DNA from: a virus
Direction: 5' to 3' (one strand)
Length of the DNA: 64,000 bases
Virus record (IMG/VR): IMGVR_UViG_3300027821_000007
Span: 1-64,000 of that record
The number at the start of each line of letters is the position of its first letter. Positions within the stretch are counted from its first letter, which is position 1. Both the position numbers and the translations under genes were made by a program. The notes below the pieces were generated by a model that saw nothing but the letters and a program-made list of their open reading frames with translations, made no database searches and was not told the DNA's origin. Below are positions 11,439 through 59,596 of this stretch, piece after piece.

Positions 11439-11468
11439 GCGGTTATGTGCGGTTACGTGCGGTTACAT
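11439..11468. repeat. Three tandem 10-bp repeats GCGGTTAYRT
   Basis: GCGGTTATGT, GCGGTTACGT and GCGGTTACAT in direct tandem, followed by a degenerate GCGCGGTTGCGC. Ten-base spacing places each copy on the same face of the helix, as expected of a protein-binding iteron site. Confidence 0.6.
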
Positions 11469-11486
11469 GCGCGGTTGCGCGAAACT

Positions 11487-11514
11487 GCTCGAAAATAATC
11501 AGCTAGTTTCGAGC
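11487..11514. repeat. 8-bp hairpin GCTCGAAA/TTTCGAGC at array edge
   Basis: Inverted repeat with a 12-nt AT-rich loop, ending 6 bp before the first recognisable array motif. If the array is transcribed leftward, this lies at the 3' end and could end or protect the transcript. Confidence 0.55.
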
Positions 11515-11520
11515 AACCCA

Positions 11521-14500
11521 GGCGCTCAAGCTCAACGGTTCACTCGCGCGACTGGGCTGCGCTCGTGGATTTCGGTTCAGTCGGTATTTTCGGCTGCGCT
11601 CGCGGACAACGGTTCGGTCAGGATCTCTGGCTGCGCTCGTTCAGCACGGTTCGCTCCAGTGGAACGGCTGCGCTCACTTATGTCGGTTCGGTCAGAAAGC
11701 TCGGCTACGCTCGACCTGTTCGGTTCGATCATCTTTCACGGCTACGCTCTCGTGGGCGCGGTTCGATCATCTGTCACGGCTGCGCTCCTACATCACGGTT
11801 CGTTCGGGGGCCCGGGCTGAGCTCGTCAAGTTCGGTTCGGTCGGCTGTCTCGGCTGCGCTCACACCCCACGGTTCGATCGGTGTGGTTGGCTGCGCTCAT
11901 TGAGATCGGTTCATGCGGTTTGCCCGGCTGCGCTCTTGTGCTTTGGTTCGGTCTGCGGTCAAGGCTGCGCTCTGTAACGACGGTTCACTCCCAATCTCTG
12001 GCTACGCTCGTGACTGGCGGTTCGCTCCAATTTTGCGGCTACGCTCGTGGAGCAAGGTTCGATCGCGGACAACGGCTGCGCTCTGGCGTGTGGGTTCGAT
12101 CTCATCAATCGGCTACGCTCTCCTACTACGGTTCCCGCGGTGATTGCGGCTGCGCTCGATGGCGGCGGTTCCTTCCTGTATTGCGGCTACGCTCCATTGA
12201 TACGGTTCTCTCGCCCGAGGAGGCTGCGCTCGTTTGCCGCGGTTCCTTCCTTATCGACGGCTACGCTCCATTGGCACGGTTCTTTCGCCCCATCGCGGCT
12301 GCGCTCAATGGCCATGGTTCGTTCGGCCGGGTCGGCTGCGCTCGTCTGCCGCGGTTCAATCATCTTACACGGCTGTGCTCGCTATTGACGGTTCGCTCCT
12401 TTGCGTCGGCTGCGCTCGTTCGGTTTGGTTCACTCCCGAGGGTTGGCTGCGCTCACATACTTTGGTTCGGTCGTTCCGGTTGGCTACGCTCTGTCATGAC
12501 GGTTCGTTCAGCCTTGATGGCTACGCTCTCTTTTCTCGGTTCGTTCGGAGACCTCAACTGCGCTCGCAGAACACGGTTCACTCGCAATAGCCGGCTACGC
12601 TCATCGGATACGGTTCACTTCCCACTGCATGGCTGCACTCGACTTGGACGGATCCCACGACGATTGCGGTTGCGCTCTTTGGTGCCGTTTCATTCGGCTG
12701 GCCTGGCTGCGCTCTTATAGCCCGGTTCGTTCTCCCTTAACGGCTACGCTCGCAAAGCTTGGTTCTCTCGCTGTCTATGGCTGCGCTCCTGCGAGACGGT
12801 TCATTCCAGCGGAACGGCTGCGCACGGTTACGATGGTTCGCTCCTTCACAACGGCTACGCTCATATCACGCGGTTCACTCTTGCGATGCGGCTACGCTCG
12901 ATTGTCACGGTTCCTACCTTGCTACGGCTACGCACAAGGGCATCGGTTCTGTCACGCTTGCGGCTGCGCTCGCACACTTTGGTTCGCTCCACGAGCAGGG
13001 CTGCGCTCACAAGACACGGTTCGCTTCACTGTCACGGCTGCTCGATGAAAGCGATGACGGCACGAATTGCCAGGAAAAGAGCGAAGCCTAACCATACTGC
13101 GTCGATGAACTCAGTCATGACTAACCGCACTCCCATTCTACTGTTCACTCGAATTCCCAGGTTGCGCTCTTGGCACGCGGTTCGATCTACTGTTTCGGCT
13201 GTGCTCGACAAGTGCGGTTCAGTCTACTTCCCCGGTTACGCTCCCGCATTCAGGTTCATTCTTCAACAACGGCTGCGCTCATGGCCTGCGGTTCGCTCCG
13301 TTCGCATGGCTGTGCTCTCTCGCTTCGGTTCTTTCAACCAGTTCGGCTACGCTCTGCCTTTCAGGTTCAATCCGATGTGACGGCTACGCTCACATACTTC
13401 GGTTCTCATCCGCTCACCGGCTACGCTCTCTTCAGACGGTTCATTCAGCCAATCGTGGCTGCGCTCACACCACACGGTTCATTCACTCTCAACGGCTACG
13501 CTCTCCCTAACACGGTTCACACCGATACCACGGCTACGCTCATGCCTTCCGGTTCATTCCGAGACGCGTGGCTGTGCTCAGCTCTTCCGGTTCGTTCCAA
13601 GACTTCGGCTGCGCTCTTCATTCATGGTTCTCTAGCTGCTTATGGCTGCGCTCGTTATCTCCGGTTCGGTCGAAAATGGCGGCTGCGCTCAAGATCTACG
13701 TCTCAGTCTCGAACTTCGGCTGCGCTCCATCGTGACGGTTCGCTCTAGTACGTCGGCTGCGCTCCAGTGTCTCGGTTCGTTCAGTTCTCCTGGCTGCGCT
13801 CATGATCAACGGTTCCATCTCGATAAACGGCTGCGCTCTAGCTCATCGGTTCGTGCGATATTTACGGCTGCGCTCTCGGTTTTTGGTTCAGTCCTTTTCT
13901 CCGGCTACGCACCTACGTTGCGGTTCTCTGATGAGGATCGGCTACGCTTCTTGACATCGGATCGGTCTTTTCTGCCGGCTACGCTCGCTACCTCCGGTTC
14001 GGTCTTCTATGACGGCTACGCTCGCATTTAACGGTTCGTTCCAACGCTTCGGCTGCGCTCGCGTCCAATGGTTCAATCCGGCAAGACGGCTGCGCTCTCG
14101 GACTTCGGTTCGTTCATTGTTAGCGGCTGCGCTCAACACAACGGTTCCATCCTGTCGTTCGGCTGCGCTCCTCGCAGGCGGTTCACTCAGAATCCATGGC
14201 TGCGCTATCGTTTCACGGTTCACACTCTGCGTTCGGCTGCGCTCGGCAATTATGGTTCGGTCAGGCTCTATGGCTGCGCTCCCTTTGGTCGTTTCATTCA
14301 AATGCGTCGGCTGCGCTCCTGCGGCCCGGTTCACTCCGAACGCTCGGCTGCGCTCAGTCTCGACGGTTCAGTCGCATCGTTCGGCTGCGCTCGCCGCACG
14401 CGGTTCATTCTGATGCGAAGGCTGCGCTCCTGTCTGACGGTTCATGCTCAAGGTGTGGCTGCGCTCACGTGGGCAGGTTCGTTCAGTTCTTCCGGCTGCG

Positions 14501-15355
14501 CTCAACAAAGACGGTTCACTCTTCGCGTCCGGCTAACGCTCTTCTGCGTCGGTTCACTGCCAGCGGTCGGCTGCGCTCAGCGGTGTTGGTTCGTTCCTGT
14601 GGATCGGCTGCGCTCTGCGGCAACGGTTCTCTACCACTGTACGGCTGCGCTCTCCAACCTAGGTTCATTCCGATGTTACGGCTGCGCTCCCCTGGTGCAG
14701 TTCTCTCGGTCTCGTGGGCTACGCTCGCTTGCAACGGTTCATTCATCCATAACGGCTGCGCTCCTGGCGTACGGTTCGGTCATTTATCACGGCTGCGTTC
14801 AAGCCCCTTGGTTCGCTCTGGCACGATGACTGCGCTCCCTAACTTCGGTTCAGTCGGCGATTATGGCTTCGATCTCTTGCCATGGTTCACTCGTTTCCTC
14901 TGGCTACGCTCTCTCTTTACGGTTCACACCCTTGAATAGGCTACGCTCACCTTGCCCGGTTCTTTCGTGACAACCGGCTGCAATCGCCTGTTTCGGTTCA
15001 TTCAAACAACTCGGCTGCGCTCATGGAGAGCGTTTCAATCGAGGATCACGGCTGCGCTCAACTTCGTTCGGTTCCCTCCGGCGCGACGGCTGGGCTCGCG
15101 GTGGTAAGGTTCACACCCGCAAGGTGTCGGTTCGCTCGCGAAGTACGGTTCCTTCCGAGATGTTGGCTACGCTCGCAGACTTAGGCTCGGTCTCGTGCTT
15201 CGGCTGCGCACGGTCTCTCCGGTTCCCTCACACAACACGGCTGCGCTCCCGCGGCTCGGTTCATTCGCAATTTATGGCTGCGCTCTTGCGCATCGGTTCA
15301 CTTCATCGACGCGGCTACGCTCGCACCAATCGGTTCATTTACACGATGCGGCTAC
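11521..15355 (-). repeat. 37-bp two-motif array with variable 9-nt spacers, ~100 units
   Basis: On the plus strand the unit is GGCTRCGCTC, 9 variable nt, GGTTCRNTC, 9 variable nt. I parsed about 100 units by eye from 11521 to 15355. Spacers are nearly always 9 nt (a few 8 or 10, one 12), usually end in C and differ almost everywhere. Motif variants are mostly single substitutions (GGCTACGCTC, GGCTGTGCTC, GGTTCATTC). The single gap (13043-13140) carries a tiny minus-strand ORF. The array's right end is in phase with the stop codon of the 15352-16347 gene. A 37-nt period is not a multiple of 3, so plus-strand frames stay open by composition, not because they code. Minus orientation is inferred from the two minus genes attached to it. 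Confidence 0.9.
13032..13118 (-). CDS. 28-residue membrane peptide inside the array
   Basis: The only sizeable interruption of the array carries an ATG-initiated frame: MTEFIDAVWLGFALFLAIRA, then a short tail ending in Pro and TGA. It is one strong transmembrane helix with an acidic N-terminus. A GGGAGTG ribosome-binding candidate lies upstream with long spacing. The stop codon overlaps array sequence. Coding is supported by composition and by its exact fit to the interruption; family unknown. Confidence 0.55.
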   Translation of the reverse strand: MTEFIDAVWLGFALFLAIRAVIAFIEQP

Positions 15356-16347
15356 TTCGTCGTCATCGGCCAGTTCGGCGGCGGCCGATAGTGGGTGTGG
15401 AGCGCATGGGTCATTATGTACGGAACTGGGGGCTTGGTGCCAGTCGCAATCTCCCACCACACCGCCTGCATATGGCTGAGGAAGAACTTCGTCGCATAGC
15501 GCTTCGCTCGCAGATGGATCCTGGCTGGCGGCAAATGACCCTCCGTGTAGTGCTTGTGCGCATCCGTCTTCGGATCGAACTTTTTCGCCTTCAACGACGC
15601 CGCGGCCTGGTCGGCAAACTTGCCGGCAGCATTGTTGGCCTCCTCGAGCGCCTTCCGCTCTTTGTAGATCTGCCCGTAATACGCGTTCTCGTTGCCGGAT
15701 ACCTTCACGAACGATTCCCCGACGATCCAGCATAAACGCTTAAGACTGGCATTGAATGGCCGTTTTTGGCCCTTTTCCCACTTCACCGTGGGATCGAGGC
15801 CGGCAAATCGCCAGATGTGCCCCGCGGTCGGGCAGGAGAACTCCGGCATATACTCATGCGGCGTTAGCTTCCGCTTCTTGTCGTCACACCGCCGCTGATG
15901 CTCCACCGGGTTGCGGCCGTGACAGATCTTGCACCACTCGCCCATATAAATGTGCGCCATCATCCCGGCTGAGATGACCGGCCCGATGCCGTGGATCGAC
16001 CGCATCCACTGACCGATCTGCTTGGAGGCGCTGTAGGCGTCCAGCGCCTTGCCGACCTGGCTCTCCAGGCTCTCCCGCTGCTCGAGCAGCCACTCCATGA
16101 TGGTGTTTGGTTCCCTGTTTTCGCCCAGGGCTCGCATCTGATGCGCGGCGCGAATGCGGTCAGCCTGCATTGCGTAATAGCTATCCACCAAGAATCTCGC
16201 TTCGTCATCGGACAGAATGCGCGCCGCCACCCGCAGGTCGCGGGTCAACCTGGCGATCGGCGTCAAGTCTATCCCCATCGGCCCCAGCGGCGGCTTCGGT
16301 CCGCTACAGCCGCCCCCGTTGGGCTTCTCCTCTGGTTGATCGGTCAT
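15352..16347 (-). CDS. IS110-type Transposase_20-like protein without the DEDD domain
   Basis: 331 residues. The helix-hairpin-helix SIHGIGPVISAGMMAHI (117-133) and HIWRFAGLDPTVKW (177-190), then KRPFNASLKRLCW and a C-terminal Arg/His/Trp-rich helix, match the C-terminal Transposase_20 domain of IS110/IS116/IS902 recombinases. The N-terminal DEDD RuvC-like domain of true IS110 enzymes is missing, replaced by a helical region (about 45-110). The position of the usual catalytic Ser (in 'ISKRG') is not a clear Ser here. An inserted Cys cluster (C139, C142, C154, C172) may bind zinc. Similar stand-alone proteins are annotated 'transposase' in phage genomes. No insertion-sequence ends seen; its stop codon lies within the repeat array. 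Confidence 0.7.
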   Translation of the reverse strand: MTDQPEEKPNGGGCSGPKPPLGPMGIDLTPIARLTRDLRVAARILSDDEARFLVDSYYAMQADRIRAAHQMRALGENREPNTIMEWLLEQRESLESQVGKALDAYSASKQIGQWMRSIHGIGPVISAGMMAHIYMGEWCKICHGRNPVEHQRRCDDKKRKLTPHEYMPEFSCPTAGHIWRFAGLDPTVKWEKGQKRPFNASLKRLCWIVGESFVKVSGNENAYYGQIYKERKALEEANNAAGKFADQAAASLKAKKFDPKTDAHKHYTEGHLPPARIHLRAKRYATKFFLSHMQAVWWEIATGTKPPVPYIMTHALHTHYRPPPNWPMTTK

Positions 16348-16364: not shown

Positions 16365-16832
16365 TTAAGCCGCCGCGGACCTGCCGCGCCGGCGCCGGAA
16401 ATCAAACACTGTCTGCTCAGGAAAGTCCACCATGGTGTGCGGAATTTGCTCGTCCTCCACCACGTCCCAGAACTCCCGGACACTGCGAACAACGTCAACC
16501 TTGTGATCCATCCAGGCCAGCGTGTCATGCAACTCGGCCTGCTCCTCGCTCAGCGTGGTGCGGTCGTGGTGCAACGTGCGCGCCAGCTTGACCTCAATCC
16601 AGCGACAACGAGCCCTGTGTGTCAGCAGCACGAGATCGGGCACGCCGCGCACCAGCCCCATGCGGTTGAGCAGGTCGGTCGTCTCGGGCGTGCGATACCC
16701 GCCGTTCGCGATCATCGCCAGGATCGCGTCCCAGGGCCGCACATGCCGCCGAAATAGCGTCACCAGGTAGATCTGCAACTTCAGCTCGTGCTGGCTCGAC
16801 TTCCGAGGGGCTGTGATCTCGCCAGTGCTCAC
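16365..16832 (-). CDS. VRR-NUC family nuclease
   Basis: PD-(D/E)XK-type endonuclease of the VRR-NUC group, common in phages. 155 residues with GVPDLVLL (63-70), RWIEVKLAR (77-85) and SEEQAELHDTL (95-105), giving the D, E-x-K and Q residues of the active site. It starts with GTG at 16832, inside the upstream zinc-finger frame, and ends 17 bp before the IS110-like gene, so the two are probably co-transcribed. VRR-NUC enzymes cut structured DNA such as junctions; a link to the neighbouring array is speculative. Confidence 0.85.
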   Translation of the reverse strand: MSTGEITAPRKSSQHELKLQIYLVTLFRRHVRPWDAILAMIANGGYRTPETTDLLNRMGLVRGVPDLVLLTHRARCRWIEVKLARTLHHDRTTLSEEQAELHDTLAWMDHKVDVVRSVREFWDVVEDEQIPHTMVDFPEQTVFDFRRRRGRSAAA

Positions 16833-55743: not shown

Positions 55744-56160
55744 ATGAGTGACGCGAAACCCATTCCGCCCGCCCGCGTGGCCGCGCAGGCCGGCGACAAG
55801 AGCTACGTGCCGGACTGGGATCCGGGGCAGAACGCGCTAACGGGCCAGCCGCCCCAGGTGGTGCCGGTGATGAACCGTCCGCTTGATGTCGGCGCGCCAG
55901 TGATGGTCGAGGGACTGACCATCCGGCCAGCCAAGCTGATGGACGCGCCCGAAGCGCGCAACACCATGTCGCGGATAATCAACGACATGCTGGTGTGGAT
56001 CGAGGATTTCCCGCACGACCTGGTGGGCGAGGGCGCGCATGTGCTGAAGGTGTTTCAGGACCTCAAGGCGCGCCGCTTTGCTCGCGTGATGGCGGCGCAG
56101 CACGACCAGGACATTGAGCCGGACGCGATCGACAAGGCGCGGTTCAAGCCCGGTCCATGA
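55744..56160 (+). CDS. Hypothetical protein, 138 aa
   Basis: ATG at 55744 after GAGAGAGAAT. Pro-rich start, then DAPEARNTMSRIINDMLVWI and a charged helical end. Probably a minor structural or assembly protein. ATGA overlap with the next gene. Confidence 0.65.
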   Translation: MSDAKPIPPARVAAQAGDKSYVPDWDPGQNALTGQPPQVVPVMNRPLDVGAPVMVEGLTIRPAKLMDAPEARNTMSRIINDMLVWIEDFPHDLVGEGAHVLKVFQDLKARRFARVMAAQHDQDIEPDAIDKARFKPGP

Positions 56161-56675
56161 TCCTTCCCACGCCGTTTCCGAAGCCGCCGGACCCTCCCGA
56201 CCCGCCGGTGCCGCCGGCGCCGCCCGAGATCCCGCAAATTCCCGGCGGCTTGCCGTCGCTGCTCTACTATCCGCCACCGATCAGCCCGAAGCCCGACGCG
56301 GTGCGCGGCCATCTGTTCGAGAAGCCGCGCTGGACTATCGCGGAGATCGGCCGGCCGGAGCGGCGGGCGCCCGATCAACGCGTTGGCGACGAACCGGTGC
56401 AATGGGGTGCCGTTCCCCAGGCGAAACCGCCGCCGACATTTTCCTGGCAGTGTCCCGAATGCCTGATCGGGCACTGGGAAAGCGCGGTGATCAAGCGCAG
56501 CACGTACAAGAGCACGATGCCGGTGGCGACGTTCTACGACAAGGCGAACACCCTGCATGTCCACGACCCCAACCTGCTGACCACGTGGTTCACCTGCACC
56601 CGCGCGCACATCTGGTCCATTCAGGAAACCCTTACCTGCCCGAACCTGAGCTGCATCTGGCCGACCGTTGTATAG
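56157..56675 (+). CDS. Proline-rich zinc-binding protein, 172 aa
   Basis: Very proline-rich N-terminus (PTPFPKPPDPPDPPVPPAPP). C-half carries two CxxC pairs (CPEC and CPNLSC region) spaced by about 60 residues with a FYDKANTLHVHDPN stretch. Unknown function. Confidence 0.65.
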   Translation: MILPTPFPKPPDPPDPPVPPAPPEIPQIPGGLPSLLYYPPPISPKPDAVRGHLFEKPRWTIAEIGRPERRAPDQRVGDEPVQWGAVPQAKPPPTFSWQCPECLIGHWESAVIKRSTYKSTMPVATFYDKANTLHVHDPNLLTTWFTCTRAHIWSIQETLTCPNLSCIWPTVV

Positions 56676-56687
56676 GAGGCCTTCACC

Positions 56688-56855
56688 ATGCTGATCTTGC
56701 TGATCGTGCTGCTCGTGCTGCTGCTCGCCGGAGGCGGATGGGGCTACAATGCCGGGCATGTCGCCTGGGGCAACCCTCTGGGCATCATCCTCTTCATCCT
56801 GCTGATCATGGTCATCTTCGGCCTGGTCGGCGGCCCGCGCTTTGGCTGGTACTAG
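56688..56855 (+). CDS. DUF3309-like double membrane peptide, 55 aa
   Basis: Two transmembrane helices: MLILLIVLLVLLLAGGGWGY and LGIILFILLIMVIFGLVGG, with a Gly-rich loop. This is the layout of DUF3309 small membrane proteins of proteobacteria. AGGAGG precedes the ATG. Membrane role unknown. Confidence 0.75.
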   Translation: MLILLIVLLVLLLAGGGWGYNAGHVAWGNPLGIILFILLIMVIFGLVGGPRFGWY

Positions 56856-56904
56856 TAAATAAACCCTTGCCGGTGTGCTGAATTCATGCGGGCATGGGCC
56901 CGTC

Positions 56905-57288
56905 ATGGCCATTCTTCCCGCTGACAAGCTGAAGCGCCTGATCCAGTTCTGCGGCATGCTCGGCAGCGATTTCCCCGGCGAACGGGCGAACGCGGCCAAG
57001 ATGGCCAACGACCTGTTGCGCGAGCACAAGCTGACCTGGGAAGAAGCGCTGGGCGGCGCCAAGCCGAACGGAGCGAACCCGTTCACGCCGCCGCCCCCGG
57101 GTTGGAAATCGTCGAAGCCGGTGGCCTGGCGCGAGCAGGCACGCGAGTGCCTCGAATATCCCAGCGAAATGAGCTCGTGGGAGGCCGAGTTCCTCGCCTC
57201 GATCCTGAAGCAACCCCGGGCCACGTTGTCACCCAAGCAGGCAGCGGTCCTCGACAAGATCTACGGGCGGCTTTTCGACGCCGATTGA
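56905..57288 (+). CDS. Helical protein, DUF2786-like, 127 aa
   Basis: MAILPADKLKRLIQFCGMLG then GERANAAKMANDLLREHKLT resembles the DUF2786 motif, followed by a proline linker and helical C-half. GTG at 56875 is an alternative start. Followed by a strong terminator. Confidence 0.65.
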   Translation: MAILPADKLKRLIQFCGMLGSDFPGERANAAKMANDLLREHKLTWEEALGGAKPNGANPFTPPPPGWKSSKPVAWREQARECLEYPSEMSSWEAEFLASILKQPRATLSPKQAAVLDKIYGRLFDAD

Positions 57289-57333
57289 GGAAAAGTTGCT
57301 TTTGTTTCAGTCATCGGGCAAAACTTGACTTCA

Positions 57334-57357
57334 AGCGGCCAGAGGGCCGCTTTTTTT
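57334..57357 (+). terminator. Rho-independent terminator
   Basis: AAGCGGCC-AGA-GGCCGCTT then TTTTTTT, after the 56905 gene. Confidence 0.9.
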
Positions 57358-57373
57358 GTGGGTTCAGTGCCGA

Positions 57374-59596
57374 TTGTCCCTGCTCAAACATAGTCCGGGC
57401 GCGCCCCTGACGCCGGCGGAATTGATCCAGCGGCGCAATGCCGCGCGTTCGCGCTGGAAGGCCGGCGGGGTGCAGGCTGGCGTTCTCGCGGCAGGCGGCG
57501 GCGTCGGCGGGGGTATCGGTGCGGGCGTCGGCGCCTACCACGGACTCAAGGAAGCTGGCGCGCGCGAATTCAAGCGCCGGTCGCAGGCTTCGGCCGAGGC
57601 CGAGGCGGCGTTCCGCACCAAGGCGGTCGAGGCGCAGCACGAGATCAACGCCGCCAGGCGCGCGTTGCGGGAGGCGCGAACCCGCGATTGGATGAAGCAG
57701 TACAATCGCTGGGCCGAGCAGCTCCGCGAGACGGTGCCGAAGCAACGGGGCAAGAAGCAGCCGAAGAAGACCCTGATCGAGGCGATGTACGGTTCGGAAA
57801 CCGTGCTCGAGATGAAGGCGCGCAAACTCGTCAACGAACGCAACGAAATGGGCATGGCGGGCGGCGCGCCGCGGATGACCAACGAAGAGGTCCACGAGAC
57901 CTACAACGAGATCCTGAACGATCTGAAGCGGCAGGCGCGTCCGGCGCCCGCGGTCGAGTTCAAGCCGTTCCGGCCGATTATCGGCAACAAGCAGAACAAG
58001 CTCATCTACGACCGCGAGATCTGGGACCTGAAGGAGAAGAAGCTCAAGCCGGCGATAGCGTGGCGGGAGCGGTTGATCACCAAGGAGGTCCTGGCCGTTG
58101 GCGGCGATCCGACCAATGCGGCCGAACGCGCCGAAGCCGCCGCGACAAACGCGGTAAGGCCGGCACATCTCGAGATTTCCGACATCAACCGGCAGATCAA
58201 GGATTTCGAGGACCTGAAAACCCGCGGCTTCCGGCGTCAGGCGCGCTCGGGCCATGTCCAGCAACGCAAGACCGGCAAGGTCAACATCGCCCCGCAGATC
58301 GTCGAGCAGCATCGCGGCGGCGACACTGTGGCCGGGATGATGGGTCGGCGCAGTAAGAAGAAGGCCAAGATCGAAGCGGACATGAAGCGGTTCCTGGGGC
58401 GGCATGACCTCCAGACCGCGCGCCGGGTCAAGGAACTCGAGCGCCACATCGCCGACCGACTGGTGAACGAGGCGAAGATCGAGGCCGGGTTTCGCCAGTT
58501 CAAGCAGCCGATCTGGGAAGCTGGCCCGGCCGCCGCCAAGGCCGGCGCGATCCATGGCGGCAAACTCGGCGCCGCGATCGGCCTGACCGCCGCCGGGGTT
58601 TCGCTGCTGGCCTACCACGCCGTCAAGGCGGTGCATCGCCGGCTCAAGAAGTCCGCCGACGGCCTGCCGCTACTGGCCAAGGCGGCCACGCCCGAGGACG
58701 AGGCGTCGATCAGCCTGGCGCGGGCCTATCGTCGCTGGATCGATCGCCTGCTGGGCCTCGACGAACGGCCGATCAATTTCGGCGACGGCTTCGCCGAGGC
58801 GCTGGCCCCGTTGATCTCCGACTCTTTCGCCAAGGGATTGACGACGGCGCCGGTCGTCCAGCCGGACGATCCGCGCTACCGCATCGACGTCGATTTCGAC
58901 CTCTTCGATCCGGCGCAGGAGCGCCACATCGCCGAATACGCGCTGCGCCAGATCGTCGAGATGAGCAACGCTCAACGCGAGGCGATCCGCGCCGCGGTGC
59001 GCGATCAGTCGGTGCTGGAAGGAATTGGTCCGATCGAGGTCGCGCGCACCATCCGCCAGGCGATCGGCCTGACCACCTACCAGCAAAGCGTCGTGGCCTC
59101 TTTCCGTACCCAACTCGACCAGCTCGACCCGCGCGCGCTCGAGCGCGAACTGCGCGACAAGCGCTACGACCGCACGCTGCGCGCCGCGATCGCGAGCAAC
59201 ACGCCGCTCGATGCCGACAAGATCAATGCCATGGTCGACGCTTATCACCGCCGGATGCTGGCGTTGCGGGCGCAGACCATCGCGCGCACCGAATCGATCC
59301 GGGCCGAAAGCTATGGCGGCCTGTCGCGGGCGCAACAGATCCTCGACCAGAACCCGGAGCTCGAGGTTACCAAGCGCTGGCTGGCGACGGCTGACAACCG
59401 TACCCGCGACACCCACCGCGACCTCAACGGCAAGGAGGTCGACGGCATGACCACGCATTTCATCACCTCGGCCGGCAATCAGATCCGCTGGCCGCTGGAT
59501 GACACGGCGGCGGCCGACGAGGTCATCAACTGCCGCTGCACGCTGCAATACATCTTCAAACCGAGACGGGGGCATCTCATGGCGGTCGCGGCATGA
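57374..59596 (+). CDS. Mu gpF-like head morphogenesis protein with large N-terminal extension
   Basis: About 740 residues. The C-terminal third has the Mu F-like minor-head motif: QTIARTESIRAESYGGLSRA, KRWLATADNRTRDTHRDLNG and ADEVINCRCTLQYIF. The N-terminal two-thirds, Arg/Lys-rich with a glycine-zipper membrane helix (GVLAAGGGVGGGIGAGVGAY) and long charged helices, is extra. Start unclear (TTG at 57374 or 57356). Confidence 0.75.
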   Translation: MSLLKHSPGAPLTPAELIQRRNAARSRWKAGGVQAGVLAAGGGVGGGIGAGVGAYHGLKEAGAREFKRRSQASAEAEAAFRTKAVEAQHEINAARRALREARTRDWMKQYNRWAEQLRETVPKQRGKKQPKKTLIEAMYGSETVLEMKARKLVNERNEMGMAGGAPRMTNEEVHETYNEILNDLKRQARPAPAVEFKPFRPIIGNKQNKLIYDREIWDLKEKKLKPAIAWRERLITKEVLAVGGDPTNAAERAEAAATNAVRPAHLEISDINRQIKDFEDLKTRGFRRQARSGHVQQRKTGKVNIAPQIVEQHRGGDTVAGMMGRRSKKKAKIEADMKRFLGRHDLQTARRVKELERHIADRLVNEAKIEAGFRQFKQPIWEAGPAAAKAGAIHGGKLGAAIGLTAAGVSLLAYHAVKAVHRRLKKSADGLPLLAKAATPEDEASISLARAYRRWIDRLLGLDERPINFGDGFAEALAPLISDSFAKGLTTAPVVQPDDPRYRIDVDFDLFDPAQERHIAEYALRQIVEMSNAQREAIRAAVRDQSVLEGIGPIEVARTIRQAIGLTTYQQSVVASFRTQLDQLDPRALERELRDKRYDRTLRAAIASNTPLDADKINAMVDAYHRRMLALRAQTIARTESIRAESYGGLSRAQQILDQNPELEVTKRWLATADNRTRDTHRDLNGKEVDGMTTHFITSAGNQIRWPLDDTAAADEVINCRCTLQYIFKPRRGHLMAVAA

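What the first reader, a model, noticed from the sequence alone, without database searches (positions are those of the whole stretch)
11521..15355. A ~100-copy 37-bp array of two fixed motifs separated by hypervariable, fixed-length spacers
Every unit is GGCTRCGCTC + 9 nt + GGTTCRNTC + 9 nt. The motifs are almost invariant, while the roughly 200 spacers are nearly all different yet stay at 9 nt. Constant length with variable sequence argues for selected spacing or for spacers with information content, not simple tandem duplication. Array size (3.8 kb, about 6% of the window) is a large cost for a phage. It is not a classic CRISPR (repeats too short, two alternating repeats, no cas genes visible), nor ordinary iterons (too long). 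Possible uses: an ordered protein-binding ladder (origin, partition, packaging, decoy), or a source of very short guide RNAs.
Basis: seen in the sequence. Interest (0 to 1): 0.95.

Follow-up and report, generated by a model that had tools for sequence, protein, structure and literature searches.

The report
Giant phage TIGR guide-RNA array
A virus of bacteria carries an unusually long store of about 102 tiny paired RNA guides next to the protein that uses them (TasA of the recently described TIGR-Tas family), so the strange repeat array is a known kind of RNA-guided DNA-binding system, with more guides than any other array found in this survey.

Summary
The array is real. It lies on the minus strand (15355 to 11524): 102 edge repeats (GAGCGYAGCC) alternating with 103 loop repeats (GANYGAACC), separated by 204 spacers, 184 of them exactly 9 nt and 203 distinct. 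It is a TIGR array (Faure et al. 2025, PMC12045711). The gene directly upstream on the same strand (15352-16347) encodes the Tas protein: it passes NCBIfam's TIGR-Tas model (174.7 bits, cutoff 100), its family profile hits solved TasR and TasH, and the ten best Foldseek matches are TasR or TasH. It has no HNH or RuvC domain, so it is TasA type. Of 99 relatives scanned, 92 have such an array. The window's is the largest (103 loops; next 53; median 19; published arrays usually 5-15 units). Among close relatives, simple gaps between arrays are always whole two-spacer units (49 of 49), while collinear spacers diverge little (3.0%; repeats 1.9%): spacers are inherited information, gained and lost as guide units. 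No targets were found. Likely function, inferred: RNA-guided DNA binding without cutting.

The parts
15352..16347 (-). tasA: 331-aa Nop-domain TIGR-associated protein, no nuclease domain, with a Cys-rich insertion (about residues 136-170) shared with L036/L038
   Evidence: NCBIfam NF052498 E=2.6e-51, above cutoff; PDB profile search hits TasR 9mty and TasH 21kl; AlphaFold2 plus Foldseek top 10 = TasR/TasH; no Pfam nuclease; insertion
11524..15355 (-). TIGR array: 102 edge and 103 loop repeats, unit about 37 nt, 9-nt spacers A and B
15350..15355 (-). 5'-truncated edge repeat GTAGCC at the array's 5' end, overlapping the TAG stop of tasA
   Evidence: sequence
11524..11527 (-). 3'-truncated edge repeat GAGC at the array's 3' end
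   Evidence: sequence
11456..11530 (-). stretch 3' of the array that folds into a stable hairpin (-30.6 kcal/mol), possible transcript end; no U-rich intrinsic terminator found
13035..13118 (-). 28-aa hydrophobic mini-ORF (MTEFIDAVWLGFALFLAIRAVIAFIEQP) in the only long interruption of the array; role unknown
16365..16832 (-). neighbouring ORF with weak VRR-NUC nuclease similarity, 17 bp upstream of tasA; not found beside tas in relatives, so not counted as part of the system

Best explanation
This is a TIGR-TasA system of a tailed phage. Shown: the anatomy, the repeat and spacer structure, and membership of the adjacent protein in the Tas family. Inferred from the published TIGR-Tas biochemistry: the array is transcribed on the minus strand, probably together with tasA, cut inside each edge repeat into about 102 tigRNAs of about 37 nt, and each tigRNA is held by a TasA dimer at its box C/D-like repeat ends. 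Spacer A pairs with one strand of a DNA target and spacer B with the other. As this Tas has no nuclease domain, the complex most likely binds and bends target DNA and so blocks its transcription or replication, rather than cutting it. The likeliest targets are host DNA or competing mobile elements that are not in the data I could search. The long array gives the phage about 102 different guides.
For: Membership: NCBIfam TIGR_Tas_endo 174.7 bits; profile hits to TasR 1.3e-21 and TasH 9.7e-13; fold matches. Array anatomy equals the published description: two alternating 8-12-nt repeats, 9-nt spacers, truncated edge repeats at both ends. 92 of 99 relatives scanned have an array of the same type, mostly directly downstream of tas. 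Information content: 203 of 204 spacers distinct; collinear spacers in close relatives diverge 3.0%, and simple gains and losses come as whole A+B units, 49 of 49, as expected if the A-B pair is the working unit.
Against: Transcription, processing and binding were not tested. No natural target was found in the own 91.5-kb genome, in related phages, or for three guides of a related array among 90 genomes of the genus of its Halomonas host. Whole-unit indels could also arise simply because recombination between like repeats removes whole units. The loop's third base is variable here, so one pair expected inside the repeat is not kept. No U-rich terminator was found after the array.
Confidence: 0.9

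Rival explanations
1. Same TIGR-TasA system, but its guides act on the phage's own genome (gene regulation, replication control or help to an integrase).
For: TasA is a binder rather than a cutter by domain content; the TIGR-Tas authors suggest blocking of transcription or help to integrases for TasA. One weak excess of 2-mismatch self matches in one geometry, 27 against 13.3 expected.
Against: No perfect or 1-mismatch composite sites in the own 91.5 kb at gaps 0-2 in either geometry; the weak excess is spread over gaps and, gap by gap, at most nominal (3 of 100 rotations) among many tests.
Confidence: 0.12
2. The repeats are DNA sites bound in series by a protein (origin, partition, packaging or decoy ladder), and the spacers are filler.
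For: Constant spacing and conserved motifs; some TIGR tasA genes are reported in operons with parB-like genes.
Against: Filler should drift: collinear spacers in close relatives differ by only 3.0%, near the 1.9% of repeats. The adjacent protein is an RNA-binding Nop protein of the TIGR-Tas family.
Confidence: 0.03
3. The adjacent gene is an IS110-type transposase and the array its bridge-RNA region or a tandem-duplication artefact.
For: PHROGs names the family 'transposase'; distant homology to IS621 and ISCro4.
Against: IS110 NCBIfam score 12.5 bits against a cutoff of 140; the N-terminal DEDD domain is absent; bridge RNAs are not arrays; no unit of this array is a recognisable copy of another.
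Confidence: 0.02

Closest known systems
TIGR-TasA systems (Faure et al. 2025, Science, PMC12045711)
   Same: Solo Nop-domain protein beside an array of alternating edge and loop repeats with two 9-nt spacers per unit, truncated edge repeats at both ends, in a phage
   Different: About 102 units against usually 5-15; unit of 37 nt (10-nt edge repeat) instead of 36; Cys-rich insertion in TasA; mini-ORF inside the array
TIGR-TasR and TIGR-TasH (PDB 9mty; 21kl, 9w02-9w04)
   Same: Nop domain homologous over most of its length; same array logic
   Different: No N-terminal RuvC or HNH nuclease here
IS110 recombinases (IS621, ISCro4)
   Same: Distantly related Nop-like domain
   Different: No DEDD domain, no bridge RNA, fails the IS110 model
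CRISPR arrays
   Same: Repeats separated by unique spacers of constant length beside an effector gene
   Different: Repeats of 9-10 nt of two kinds, 9-nt spacers, no cas or adaptation genes recognised near the array

Membership tests
TIGR-Tas | Adjacent Nop-domain Tas protein | tested here: met
   NF052498 E=2.6e-51 above cutoff; 9mty E=1.3e-21; Foldseek top 10 TasR/TasH
TIGR-Tas | Two distinct alternating 8-12-nt repeats with about 9-nt variable spacers | tested here: met
   10-nt edge, 9-nt loop, 184 of 204 spacers 9 nt
TIGR-Tas | Truncated edge repeats at both array ends | tested here: met
   GTAGCC at 15350-15355 and GAGC at 11524-11527 on the minus strand
TIGR-Tas | Edge and loop repeats share box C and box D-like ends | tested here: met
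   Both begin GA and end CC followed by a purine; across relatives both kinds mostly keep GA...C. The exact boxes of solved TasR are UG and CCA, so box D differs
TIGR-Tas | Rho-independent terminator after the array | tested here: inconclusive
   Strong hairpin but no U-tract match
TIGR-Tas | Array processed to about 36-nt tigRNAs bound by Tas | not testable with these tools
   Needs small-RNA sequencing
TIGR-Tas | tigRNA-guided binding of both target DNA strands | not testable with these tools
   Needs biochemistry; no natural target found
TasA subgroup | Solo Nop domain, no RuvC or HNH | tested here: met
   Homology to TasR starts at TasR residue 121, after its nuclease domain; no nuclease Pfam match
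IS110 transposase | Passes the IS110 family model | tested here: not met
   12.5 bits against cutoff 140
CRISPR-Cas | Single repeat type of 25-36 nt with cas genes | tested here: not met
   Repeat anatomy; no Cas domain among the ORFs next to the array that were scanned with Pfam; not every ORF of the window was scanned

The most novel reading that the evidence does not exclude
Phage TIGR arrays are evolving guide libraries: whole two-spacer units are gained and lost quickly while retained spacers are kept almost unchanged, arrays can be dispersed around one genome far from tas, and the window's TasA with its Cys-rich insertion uses about 102 guides to bind many sites in a host or rival, a multi-target DNA-binding weapon that does not cut.
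Probability: 0.35. Interest if true: 0.8.

Novelty: new member of a known kind. Interest (0 to 1): 0.5.

Why it matters
The TIGR-Tas discovery paper lists the natural targets and the way arrays arise and grow as open questions. This locus has the largest array in my survey and so the richest single guide set with which to look for targets once host and neighbour genomes are known. The comparison of related phages gives a testable description of array change: whole-unit gain and loss with conserved spacers.

Tried and rejected
Target searches: all 1134 distinct guides against about 1.2 Mb of related phage DNA in four geometries with permuted pairs as control, no excess; window guides against the own 91.5 kb; window guides against a repeat-sharing phage and the reverse (the reverse counts are inflated by one truncated guide and were redone); exact composite patterns of two guides conserved among relatives in IMG/VR, at about chance level and in unrelated genes; three guides of a Halomonas prophage array against 90 genomes of its genus, none. 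A general rule that new units enter at one end: clear in L004/L005/L006/L077 only, not in other groups. VRR-NUC gene as a conserved partner: not beside tas in relatives. Rfam: no family. Spacer duplication inside the window array: no unit pair closer than 6 of 16 core positions.

Full report
Observation. The array is real and far beyond chance. On the minus strand it reads edge GAGCGYAGCC, spacer A, loop GANYGAACC, spacer B. The exact edge-N9-loop pattern occurs 46 times, against none in 100 shuffles. Segmentation finds 102 edges and 103 loops with 204 spacers, 184 of 9 nt and 203 distinct. Spacer letters are close to random except the first base (G 69-77%, A 15-21%), so the repeat in effect ends CCR; spacers A and B of one unit show no similarity or complementarity. 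No unit is a recognisable copy of another in this array, whereas a relative such as L042 does contain repeated units.

Identity of the neighbour. The ORF 15352-16347 on the same strand ends with a TAG stop that overlaps the array's first, 5'-truncated edge repeat. It matches NCBIfam NF052498 'TIGR-Tas system RNA-guided endonuclease' with 174.7 bits (cutoff 100) and fails the IS110 model (12.5 against 140). A nine-member alignment finds TasR 9mty (1.3e-21), TasH 21kl (9.7e-13) and, far behind, IS621. The AlphaFold2 model (mean pLDDT 74.9) has TasR and TasH chains as its ten best PDB matches, then IS110 enzymes. Homology to TasR begins after TasR's RuvC domain and no nuclease domain is found, so this is TasA type, despite the word endonuclease in the NCBIfam name. 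Pfam alone misses it and PHROGs calls it transposase, which explains why it is easy to overlook.

Comparison with the published family. Faure et al. 2025 (PMC12045711) describe arrays of two alternating 8-12-nt repeats with mostly 9-nt spacers, usually 5 to 15 units, beginning and ending with truncated edge repeats, beside a Nop-domain protein, common in phages. The testable anatomical features are met here except a clear U-tract terminator. Differences: about 102 units, a 37-nt unit due to a 10-nt edge repeat, a Cys-rich insertion in TasA also seen in L036/L038, and a mini-ORF inside the array.

Survey. Scans of IMG/VR and of species genomes gave 99 related loci. In 92 of them my segmentation finds an array of the same type: 66 only downstream of tas, 17 only upstream, 9 on both sides. 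The window's array is the largest, 103 loops, then 53 and 47; the median is 19 over 95 loci counted, the window included. The counts depend on seven starting consensus pairs and on contig ends, so the other seven loci may have arrays of another type or cut-off arrays. Hosts named in the genome hits include Acidobacteria, Halomonas and Propionivibrio; the host of the window phage is unknown. Its terminase is nearest to Rhizobium phages at only 37% identity.

Array change between relatives. In 22 pairs of related loci I aligned arrays by spacer. Elements lying between two matched elements in both arrays differ in 3.0% of spacer positions and 1.9% of repeat positions; 7 of 351 were replaced outright and are left out of the rates. 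The pairs share members, so they are not independent. All 49 simple gaps were whole units. Turnover can be fast: L019 and L024 have tas genes 99.4% identical but share 17 of 45 spacers, while L021 and L024 share all 56 spacers (each within one mismatch) with tas 96.3% identical, which suggests exchange between arrays and tas. Distal units are the more conserved in one group, but no polarity holds in all.

Targets. No enrichment of composite sites was found in own or related phage genomes under either order of the two half-sites, with the 0-2-bp gaps tolerated by TasR. Database-wide exact searches are near the noise level for 17-18 specified bases and hit unrelated genes. So the function proposed, RNA-guided DNA binding against host or rival DNA, is inference from the family.

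Verdict. An already described kind of system; a new and unusually large member.

Noticed in passing
L012 7980-10109; L137, L138 and L140 (G094 56157-58217): TasA reading frames of 709 and 771 aa are split by a long insertion; in L012 it has Hint/intein-like sequence after the conserved SLKRLC, and the G094 insertion lies at about the same place. Apparent inteins in TasA.
   Followed up: partly
G093 (IMGVR_UViG_3300005764_000016): L135, L134, L126, L132: A 68-kb phage with the same repeat consensus as the window carries several small TIGR arrays dispersed over the genome, some more than 15 kb from tas and one on the other strand, with one guide unit shared between two arrays.
   Followed up: partly
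window 13035-13118 (-): 28-aa hydrophobic mini-ORF inside the only long interruption of the array; no homologue in the fetched loci.
   Followed up: partly
window 16365-16832 (-): Weak VRR-NUC nuclease-like ORF 17 bp upstream of tasA; not conserved beside tas in relatives.
   Followed up: yes
L076 9161 and L080 2851: Two loci whose tas genes did not group at 82% identity share one guide with all 16 core positions identical.
   Followed up: partly
L011 8800-9600: A 327-kb viral contig with a TasA relative and, downstream, a tandem region with a different, T-rich motif that my segmentation did not parse; possibly another array type.
   Followed up: no
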